Assembly: GCA_017404985.1 (NCBI GenBank)
Contig: JAFRBK010000025.1
Span: 1-55,815, forward strand
Reading direction: 5' to 3'
Source: Clostridia bacterium
GTDB taxonomy: Bacteria > Bacillota > Clostridia > Christensenellales > Aristaeellaceae
DNA: 55,815 bases
The position numbers and the translations under genes were made by a program. Under the pieces are notes generated by a model. It saw only the letters and a program-made list of their open reading frames with translations. It ran no database searches and had not been told where the DNA came from. Shown here one piece after another: positions 53,731 through 54,939 of this stretch (within the stretch, counting starts at the first letter, position 1; each line of letters begins with the position of its first letter).

Positions 53731-54441
53731 TCAGATATCGTATTTTTTCAGCAGCATGTCCAGCGCTTCCCGCAACAGAATGGCTTCTCCGATGCCCTCC
53801 CGTTTGGCCAGCTTCGCCAGGCGCTGCAGCTGGTCCTGGGTGTAGTGGCTGGTCTTCGGCACCATTTTTTCTTCCCTTGCCATGGCGATTTTGTTCCGCC
53901 CGCTCCGCTTGGCCCGGAAAAGGGCGCCGTCCGCCTTCCGTATGAGCTCCGGGCAGCGGGCCGCGTCTTCGTATGCCGTCGCCATGCCGATGGTGATGGT
54001 CTGCTTTTCCCCGTCCGGGGCATATACTTCGTATCCGTTTTTCAGATCGTTCAGCAGCAGGAAGATTTCCTCCCGCTCCATTGTCCCCCGGAAAATGATG
54101 CCGAATTCATCCCCACCGATCCGATATACCCTGGCTTCCTCGGGCAGGGACTGCGCGATATATTTCCCGGTTTCGATCAGAATGCGGTCCCCTTCGTCGG
54201 GACCGAAATCCCGGTTGATGCGGTCAAACAGGTCGCAGTCGATCAGAGCGATCGCCGCAGTCTCGCCGCTTTCTTCCGTCCCGCTTGCGAAGATTTCCTC
54301 CAAGTCTGCCTCAAATGCGTCTCCGGTGGGGAAGTGCAGCGCGTCGTTTACTGCAGTGTGCTTTTTTGCTGTGTGCCTGCGGGCCACTTCCTTATGGTCC
54401 TCCACGGTCACCGGATGTTTGATGCTTTCGTTATCTTTCAT
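53731..54441 (-). CDS. GGDEF-domain protein with C-terminal ribbon-helix-helix-like domain
   Basis: 236 residues. Residues 60-185 are a diguanylate-cyclase-type domain with an intact active site RIGGDEFGIIF; the usual inhibitory RxxD site upstream of it is missing. Residues 193-236 (MVPKTSHYTQDQLQRLAKLAKREGIGEAILLREALDMLLKKYDI) look like a CopG/Arc-type ribbon-helix-helix: a strand with alternating residues, helix 1, a G-turn and helix 2. There is no membrane or sensor domain. If right, this is a cytosolic c-di-GMP synthase (or degenerate sensor) that also binds DNA. Start ATG 54441 has AAAGGATGGGG upstream. Four inverted repeats lie directly upstream. Confidence 0.8.
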   Translation of the reverse strand: MKDNESIKHPVTVEDHKEVARRHTAKKHTAVNDALHFPTGDAFEADLEEIFASGTEESGETAAIALIDCDLFDRINRDFGPDEGDRILIETGKYIAQSLPEEARVYRIGGDEFGIIFRGTMEREEIFLLLNDLKNGYEVYAPDGEKQTITIGMATAYEDAARCPELIRKADGALFRAKRSGRNKIAMAREEKMVPKTSHYTQDQLQRLAKLAKREGIGEAILLREALDMLLKKYDI

Positions 54442-54474
54442 ATCTGCCCCATCCTTTCTGATTCATATGATTTC

Positions 54475-54571
54475 GACATATTATTTCCGAGATAATATGT
54501 CATGATAGAACATATTTATCATAAAAATATTATGATGTCAATATGCGGCAATATTATTTTGCAAATAATAT
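54475..54571. promoter_or_regulatory. Array of four inverted repeats upstream of the GGDEF-RHH gene
   Basis: 1) GACATATTAT-N7-ATAATATGTC (54475-54501), perfect 10+10. 2) ATGATA-N9-TATCAT (54502-54522). 3) ATCATAA-N5-TTATGAT (54518-54536). 4) ATATTATTT-N3-AAATAATAT (54551-54571). Repeats 1 and 4 share the core ATATTAT. The array begins 34 bases from the GGDEF start and likely overlaps its promoter. RHH proteins bind such A+T-rich dyads cooperatively, so it may be an autoregulatory operator. Confidence 0.55.
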
Positions 54572-54939
54572 ATAATGAAAAACGGGATCAGCCGGCAGGA
54601 TCCGGAAGGTGCGGGTGGACTGCTATGCTTTGAAATTTTACCCTTTTGTAACATCCTGACAGAAGCCCACTGGGTATGGGGAGTGCGGGGAGGCTTGCAT
54701 CCAACAAGTTCGGTCGGGGCTTTATTTTCAACGTTTTCGGGGAACGAAAAAAACACGAAACTGACTAGATTGCCCATTTTATTCGCTTCTCCTGGGTGCT
54801 ATTATGGCAGTCCACTCACTTTTCGCCCGCTCACCCAGGAGCGGAGGGAAGCTGCTTCCCTGCGGAACCGGAAGCCGGAACGGAACCGCAGGTATCAACG
54901 CCTTCCGGCGAACCCTTCCTGTCACGCAAAGGAGTTGAA
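54572..54939. other. Intergenic region with no convincing gene
   Basis: Open frames exist on both strands but have no ribosome site and no recognised domain. A 10-base inverted repeat CTCCTGGGTG / CACCCAGGAG lies at about 54789-54842. The stretch leads into mobile-element debris on the right and may be non-coding DNA of that element. Confidence 0.4.

What the first reader, a model, noticed from the sequence alone, without database searches (positions are those of the whole stretch)
53731..54571. GGDEF protein with a ribbon-helix-helix tail beside four inverted repeats
The enzyme domain has an intact GGDEF motif, no sensory or membrane part, and a short C-terminal segment that looks like a CopG-type DNA-binding domain. 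Directly upstream lie four A+T-rich inverted repeats, one perfect over 10+10 bases. This suggests a direct link between c-di-GMP synthesis and DNA binding, possibly autoregulation, in one small cytosolic protein.
Basis: partly seen in the sequence, partly recalled or inferred. Interest (0 to 1): 0.75.

Follow-up and report, generated by a model that had tools for sequence, protein, structure and literature searches.

The report
Self-regulating GGDEF–ribbon-helix-helix repressor family
A small bacterial protein joins the domain that makes the signal molecule c-di-GMP to a DNA-binding tail, and the DNA just in front of its gene carries a matching 21-base palindrome that follows the gene from genome to genome, which suggests that this enzyme-like protein switches off its own gene.

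Summary
ORF 53731-54441(-) encodes 236 aa: a GGDEF domain with its motif and ligand residues intact but no RxxD I-site, then a ribbon-helix-helix (RHH) tail that passes Pfam's cut-off. Two 21-bp palindromes, 54478-54498 and 54551-54571, flank a TTGACA-N17-TAAATA promoter-like pair and are the only matches within 3 mismatches in the genome held (2.98 Mb, 85% complete).
Comparison turns this into a family. Of 45 genomes of the genus, 19 carry the gene; exactly those 19 carry the palindrome (<=2 mismatches), and all 22 sites lie directly 5' of a copy of the gene. A wider scan gave 77 relatives, from gut Clostridia to Hydrogenedentota. Of 65 Clostridia-type loci 64 have the site within 4 mismatches; a distant clade has its own palindrome, less regular. 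Ligand residues are invariant in 64 aligned proteins, while the fourth GGDEF residue is lost in 18.
Best reading: an autorepressor of trigger-enzyme type, like PutA or PdeL but built on a diguanylate cyclase. Autoregulation is well supported by comparison; repression, enzyme activity and nucleotide coupling are inferred. Eight paper searches listed no such architecture.

The parts
53731..54441 (-). GGDEF-RHH protein gene, 236 aa
   Evidence: ORF; 21 of 100 genomes searched, own included, have a full-length homologue; 77 loci in genome contigs
53890..54318 (-). GGDEF domain, residues 42-184; motif GGDEF at residues 109-113; no I-site RxxD
   Evidence: Pfam PF00990 E 3.9e-22; modelled at high confidence and matched to solved diguanylate cyclase structures; ligand residues invariant in 64 of 64
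53734..53865 (-). ribbon-helix-helix DNA-binding tail, residues 193-236 (helices 202-215 and 219-233)
   Evidence: Pfam PF12651 above cut-off; helices in models; structural matches include ParG, CopG, PutA, Arc, CdbA, AmrZ
54478..54498 (.). operator O1 (inside the 27-bp palindrome 54475-54501), just after the predicted -10 box
   Evidence: with O2 the only match within 3 mismatches in the genome; same position in relatives
54551..54571 (.). operator O2, 9+3+9 palindrome just 5' of the predicted -35 box, 73 bp from O1 centre to centre
54536..54541 (-). predicted -35 box TTGACA
   Evidence: sequence; 44 of 65 Clostridia-type loci have TTGAC 38-44 bp 5' of a site (shuffles of the flanks give 1.15 on average, at most 6); the generic promoter scan did not list this pair
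54513..54518 (-). predicted -10 box TAAATA, 17 bp after the -35 box
   Evidence: sequence; TAAATA, TATAAA or similar at the same spacing in most of the 44 rows
54452..54457 (-). probable ribosome-binding site AAAGGA
   Evidence: sequence directly

Best explanation
This is a one-component autorepressor built on a diguanylate cyclase. The RHH tail dimerises, and two dimers bind the 21-bp palindrome ATATTATTT-N3-AAATAATAT, which lies on the transcription start (O1) and, in this genome, also just upstream of the -35 box (O2); bound protein blocks the gene's own promoter. The GGDEF domain binds GTP and, in this lineage, probably makes c-di-GMP; because the family lacks the I-site, transcriptional feedback takes the place of product inhibition. 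Occupation of the GGDEF site by nucleotide, or pairing of two GGDEF domains for catalysis, probably changes how the tails sit on the operator, as in trigger enzymes such as PutA and PdeL. Shown here by comparison: domain make-up, intact ligand residues, an operator that travels with the gene, its place on the predicted promoter, and no second target in this genome within 3 mismatches. Inferred: that this protein binds it, that binding represses, that the enzyme is active, and that nucleotide changes DNA binding.
For: RHH tail above the Pfam cut-off and RHH-like fold. Operator and gene coincide in the genus: 19 of 19 genomes with the gene have a site and 0 of 26 without it do; all 22 sites are 5' of a copy of the gene. 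The own genome holds only the two sites within 3 mismatches, control 0. In 65 Clostridia-type loci 28 have a perfect site, 59 at most 2 mismatches, 64 at most 4; among those 64 only L105 was matched by any of its 100 shuffles (3). Without any pattern, one of the three best upstream palindromes is centred on such a site in 57 of 63 loci with 60 bp or more upstream. A genome with two copies of the gene has a pair of sites before each. Another clade has a different palindrome at the same place, as expected if site and tail evolve together. Position: TTGAC 38-44 bp 5' of a site in 44 of 65, or the -35 box inside the palindrome (L126, L129, L130). Residues D68, D70, N76, D85, G110, D111, R176 and K178 in 64 of 64. 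I-site absent in 77 of 77.
Against: No binding or expression data exist; all of it is comparison. The site always lies next to the gene, so its absence from genomes without the gene partly follows from that linkage; many of the genomes are incomplete. The 77 loci and the genus genomes overlap (at least 16 loci are the same contigs as loci by length), so the two counts are not independent. The Clostridia-type pattern was read from these same loci; the pattern-free scan misses the site in 6 of 63 (L105, L114, L124, L128, L132, L133), and in some loci its best palindrome is within reach of shuffles (fraction up to 0.31 in L117; L128 has none). Of the 44 promoter rows at least four (L099, L124, L125, L133) look accidental. 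The distant clade is less regular: 6 of 11 loci have the ATACATAGG site within 3 mismatches, L136, L138 and L139 have 4, L144 has 5, L134 shows none of that type; genome-wide at 3 mismatches that pattern finds 9 places, 6 of them own, and its reversed control also finds 9. Nucleotide control of DNA binding is not shown; PMC5052742 (section 9) argues that diguanylate cyclases are normally saturated with GTP. R182 is replaced in 20 of 64. EEKMV was in one of the two search peptides, so its constancy is partly ascertainment.
Confidence: 0.72

Rival explanations
1. Nucleotide-sensing repressor: the GGDEF domain is kept as a GTP (or guanine-nucleotide) sensor and c-di-GMP synthesis is incidental or lost; DNA binding is the real output.
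For: The residues that correspond to guanine, metal and phosphate ligands (roles recalled) are invariant in 64 of 64, whereas the fourth motif residue is lost in 18 of 64, and in 19 of 77 by motif, including all 11 loci of the distant clade; the tail is more conserved (mean column identity 83% in 47 rows) than the whole protein (51% in 64 rows).
Against: 58 of 77, and the window protein, keep xGDEF; GTP is usually saturating (PMC5052742 section 9).
Confidence: 0.35
2. A plain diguanylate cyclase whose tail merely limits its own amount by repression, with no coupling between nucleotide and DNA binding.
For: In the own genome the only sites within 3 mismatches are its own; in four related genomes the only sites within 2 mismatches are its own; no I-site.
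Against: Members that seem catalytically dead keep the tail and, in most cases, a palindrome, which a pure enzyme-dose control would not need.
Confidence: 0.3
3. The palindromes are bound by another regulator and the RHH tail only dimerises the enzyme or serves another purpose.
For: No direct binding data; the tail resembles antitoxin RHH domains.
Against: Site and gene agree in presence or absence in 45 of 45 genus genomes; strand residues T197 and H199, DNA-facing by my by-eye comparison with Arc and CopG (recalled), are kept in 64 and 63 of 64; the site is kept across bacteria with no gene family of 80 aa or more recurring beside most loci.
Confidence: 0.1
4. Antitoxin-like RHH protein of a toxin-antitoxin pair.
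For: Tail profile matches the antitoxin VapB26 weakly (E 0.054); free-standing RHH relatives in L157 and L158 lie beside PIN-domain-like genes (naming by eye).
Against: No recurrent partner gene of 80 aa or more within 4 kb of the 77 loci (the 14 largest clusters seen); smaller toxins would be missed.
Confidence: 0.03

Closest known systems
PutA (proline dehydrogenase with RHH domain)
   Different: RHH is N-terminal in PutA (recalled), the enzyme is unrelated, and no substrate switch has been shown here
PdeL (LuxR-HTH plus EAL phosphodiesterase, E. coli)
   Same: A c-di-GMP enzyme with its own DNA-binding domain that binds an imperfect palindrome in its own promoter (PMC5052742 section 8)
   Different: EAL not GGDEF, HTH not RHH, and PdeL activates its own gene at low c-di-GMP, whereas the sites here sit where a repressor would act
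CdbA (Myxococcus RHH protein that binds c-di-GMP)
   Same: RHH fold linked to c-di-GMP (PMC7156744, passages); appears among structural matches
   [quoted passage not shown] no enzyme domain
AmrZ (Pseudomonas RHH regulator)
   Same: RHH regulator that controls c-di-GMP levels (search listing and abstract starts)
   Different: Separate protein, no enzyme domain (recalled)
Diguanylate cyclases of the DgcB, DosC and PleD kind
   Same: Same GGDEF fold (best Foldseek E 2.2e-15, DgcB)
   Different: No I-site here, and an RHH tail

Membership tests
RHH superfamily (PF12651 RHH_3) | profile match above the curated cut-off | tested here: met
   27.1 bits against 21.6
RHH superfamily (PF12651 RHH_3) | strand-helix-helix fold | tested here: met
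RHH superfamily (PF12651 RHH_3) | dimer that reads DNA with its strand | not testable with these tools
   no dimer or DNA-complex modelling available
Diguanylate cyclase (GGDEF) | domain match and fold | tested here: met
   PF00990 E 3.9e-22; Foldseek
Diguanylate cyclase (GGDEF) | GG(D/E)EF and nucleotide/metal residues | tested here: met
   window protein has GGDEF, D68, N76, D85, K178, R182 (roles recalled from PleD)
Diguanylate cyclase (GGDEF) | c-di-GMP synthesis | not testable with these tools
   needs an enzyme assay
Diguanylate cyclase with product inhibition | I-site RxxD | tested here: not met
   absent in the window protein and in 77 of 77 relatives
Trigger enzyme (PutA or PdeL kind) | enzyme and DNA-binding domain in one chain with a candidate site at its own promoter | tested here: met
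   binding itself is inferred
Trigger enzyme (PutA or PdeL kind) | substrate or product changes the DNA interaction | not testable with these tools
   needs gel shift with and without nucleotide
RHH antitoxin (VapB, CopASO kind) | adjacent toxin gene | tested here: not met
   no recurrent neighbour of 80 aa or more within 4 kb in 77 loci; a smaller toxin would have been missed
CdbA-type c-di-GMP receptor | c-di-GMP binding by the RHH fold | not tested
   binding residues of CdbA were not mapped onto this tail

The most novel reading that the evidence does not exclude
A previously undescribed family of transcription repressors, found in several bacterial phyla, in which a GGDEF domain serves as the nucleotide-sensing part of an RHH repressor: some lineages are self-limiting diguanylate cyclases, others have lost the fourth motif residue and are pure guanine-nucleotide-responsive repressors. 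It would be the diguanylate cyclase counterpart of PutA and PdeL, a 'trigger DGC'.
Probability: 0.45. Interest if true: 0.82.

Novelty: new variant of a known kind. Interest (0 to 1): 0.7.

Why it matters
Whether diguanylate cyclases, and not only phosphodiesterases, can act as trigger enzymes was named as an open question in 2016 (PMC5052742, section 9, read). This family gives a compact candidate: one small protein of about 190-260 aa with a defined 21-bp candidate operator, natural variants with and without the fourth motif residue, and a second clade with a different palindrome to compare against. It makes the question testable with a gel shift, an enzyme assay and a reporter. It also warns that 'diguanylate cyclase' annotations may hide DNA-binding regulators.

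Tried and rejected
Conserved neighbour genes (ORFs of 80 aa or more within 4 kb, the 14 largest clusters seen): none in the Clostridia-type loci. The largest cluster (26 loci) is an artefact of antisense ORFs overlapping the gene itself, and the ABC-ATPase cluster (12 loci) lies at scattered distances on both strands; both were dismissed by inspection.

A wider regulon: no further site within 3 mismatches in the own genome. In four near-complete genus genomes three extra 3-mismatch places appear (G035, G002, G022), not followed. In 13 genomes with other members, all places at <=1 mismatch lie before a copy of the gene by my coordinate check, except two in G105; the reversed control rang once, in G100. 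Three of 23 order genomes outside the genus have one chance-like place each (G065, G076, G080; the control also rang in G065). For the distant clade's pattern (11 genomes, 3 mismatches) there are 9 places, 6 before their own gene and 3 elsewhere, against 9 for the reversed control, so at that looseness the search says nothing about a regulon.

Helical phasing of paired operators: spacings differ between relatives with no common phase (by eye); not pursued.

c-di-GMP receptors in the genome: no PilZ match; c-di-GMP-I riboswitch not found, but its control also stayed silent, so this says nothing; 11 EAL places.

Plasmids: 1932 records match, all under 60% identity; the 20 rows seen look like generic GGDEF proteins. 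Viral contigs: one 5-kb contig (L161), not followed. The phages collection was not searched.

The generic promoter scan did not list the TTGACA/TAAATA pair; the promoter rests on its recurrence in relatives. L100 has only 48 bp upstream. L137 carries a masked stretch and was left out of A2 and A3. Left out of A2 as near-duplicates: L072, L076, L081, L084, L086, L088, L092, L093, L097, L108, L118, L119, L120 (so 63 of 77 loci plus the window). A3 holds 46 of 77 loci plus the window.

Paper searches for this architecture: (two returned nothing; of 217 papers only 12 were listed). Titles and abstract starts were seen, apart from the four papers named in the report; none described a GGDEF-RHH protein. 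The library lacks most subscription journals and holds no bioRxiv preprints.

Full report

The repeats. The four inverted repeats exist. The best, 54475-54501, has 10+10 perfect outer arms; the next, 54551-54571, has 9+9. Among 2000 dinucleotide shuffles 55 reach the best score and 3 hold two separate palindromes scoring at least 9. Both contain one 21-bp unit close to ATATTATTTCNGAAATAATAT. On the gene's strand they flank TTGACA (54541-54536), 17 bp, and TAAATA (54518-54513). In the own genome (85% complete) these are the only places within 3 mismatches, and the reversed-pattern control finds none.

The genus. Of 100 genomes searched (own included), 21 have a full-length homologue: 19 of 45 in the genus, plus G051 and G057. 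The pattern at <=2 mismatches was then sought in all 45 genus genomes (37, 8). The 19 genomes with the gene all have it; the 26 without it have none. There are 22 sites, two each in G000, G004 and G007, and every one lies directly 5' of a copy of the gene (coordinates compared by me). G007 has two copies of the gene and a site before each. G051 and G057, with more diverged proteins, do not match this pattern but carry variant palindromes (sequence; same contigs as L123 and L126). Because site and gene are neighbours, this co-occurrence is partly one event, and many genomes are incomplete; the stronger points are that such sites are rare elsewhere and stay intact while the DNA around them does not.

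The family. A scan of genome contigs found 77 loci: mostly rumen and gut Clostridia and Lachnospiraceae, including Butyrivibrio sp. WCD3002 and MC2013, one Treponema bin, one Christensenella bin, and a distant group of 11 with 8 labelled Hydrogenedentota and single Nitrospiraceae, Rhodothermaeota and Chitinophagaceae bins (record titles; binning errors are possible). Proteins are about 190-260 aa. The tail is the most constant part (mean column identity 83% in 47 rows, against 51% for the whole protein in 64 rows). EEKMV was part of one of the two search peptides, so its constancy is partly ascertainment, but the rest of the tail was not, and one search used a plain protein search.

The operator across the family. 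Of 65 Clostridia-type loci (L069-L133, the Treponema bin included), the best upstream match to ATATTATTT-N3-AAATAATAT has 0 mismatches in 28, 1 in 23, 2 in 8, 3 in 4, 4 in 1 (L105) and 9 in 1 (L100, only 48 bp upstream). Without the pattern, one of the three best palindromes is centred on such a site in 57 of 63 loci with enough upstream DNA, the best one in 45; L105, L114, L124, L128, L132 and L133 are missed (scan). In 44 of the 65, TTGAC lies 38-44 bp before a site; shuffled flanks give 1.15 on average and 6 at most in 200 rounds. At least four of the 44 rows (L099, L124, L125, L133) look accidental all the same. This places the site at about the transcription start; in others the -35 box is inside the palindrome, as in ATAATACTTGACAAGTATTAT of L126, L129 and L130. 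Mean information is 1.50 bits over the 21 bp and 0.37 on either side; those rows were chosen by matching the pattern, so this illustrates rather than tests. In the 11 distant loci another palindrome, ATACATAGG-N4-CCTATGTAT, stands upstream: within 3 mismatches in six, 4 in three, 5 in one, and not in L134. Genome-wide at 3 mismatches it has 9 places in those 11 genomes, 6 of them before their own gene, but the reversed control also has 9; the four places with 0 or 1 mismatch are all own sites. A Clostridia genome with six places (G105) has two before the L111 gene, two before a second copy of the gene in the same contig, and two elsewhere.

The enzyme domain. In 64 aligned proteins D68, D70, N76, D85, G110, D111, R176 and K178 never vary; residue 112, the fourth of GGDEF, is E in 46, A in 12, Q in 5, M in 1; R182 is kept in 44. 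In all 77, 58 keep xGDEF and 19 do not (L142 was not caught by the pattern and reads GGDAI). The I-site RxxD is absent in 77 of 77. That D68, N76, D85, D111 and K178 correspond to the metal, guanine and phosphate ligands of PleD, and that the fourth motif residue matters for catalysis, is recalled, not tested. Nucleotide binding thus seems to be kept under selection even where catalysis is doubtful.

How it most likely works. RHH proteins commonly bind such palindromes as two dimers (recalled), so the protein should occupy its own start site and shut the promoter. In this lineage the GGDEF domain is probably active and, lacking an I-site, is limited through its own synthesis. The natural extension, as in PutA and PdeL, is that nucleotide or GGDEF pairing shifts the protein between enzyme and repressor; this step is inference. 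Against GTP as a signal stands the argument that cyclases are saturated with GTP (PMC5052742 section 9). The genome has 19 places that match this protein, itself included, the other 18 through the GGDEF region, and 11 EAL places but no PilZ match.

Known relatives. The papers looked into (PMC7156744 passages, PMC5052742 sections 8 and 9 and passages, PMC10333796 and PMC5635695 passages) describe the RHH protein CdbA, which binds c-di-GMP, and PdeL, an HTH-EAL protein that activates its own gene; no GGDEF-RHH fusion was seen in those parts. Eight searches listed none. The kind, an autoregulating enzyme, is known; a diguanylate cyclase version with RHH and its operator appears to be a new variant.

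Noticed in passing
L134, L139, L143, L144, L145 (leuC-like) and L134, L138, L140, L141, L145 (leuD-like): In the distant clade, isopropylmalate isomerase-like genes lie on the same strand 22-3159 bp downstream of the GGDEF-RHH gene in 8 of 11 loci (naming by eye), which hints at a link to leucine synthesis there.
   Followed up: no
L111:7262-7915: A second GGDEF-RHH copy some 5 kb from the first in the same contig, with its own pair of palindromes.
   Followed up: yes
G035:C1:5956-5976 and G022:C1:1084093-1084113: The same 3-mismatch palindrome sequence occurs away from the gene in two related genomes; possibly a second weak target, possibly chance.
   Followed up: no
window 54518-54536: A 7+5+7 palindrome that spans the spacer between the predicted -35 and -10 boxes; not shown to be conserved.
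   Followed up: no
L156-L160: Small RHH proteins (open frames 86-98 aa) resemble the tail; in L157 and L158 they sit beside PIN-domain-like genes, as VapB antitoxins do (naming by eye), suggesting where the tail may have come from.
   Followed up: partly
window 54789-54841: A separate 10+10 perfect inverted repeat with 33 nt between the arms, upstream of the gene in a stretch where only short overlapping ORFs were listed; nature unknown.
   Followed up: no
G000: No PilZ match despite 19 places matching this GGDEF protein and 11 EAL places; the c-di-GMP receptor of this bacterium is unknown (the genome is 85% complete).
   Followed up: no
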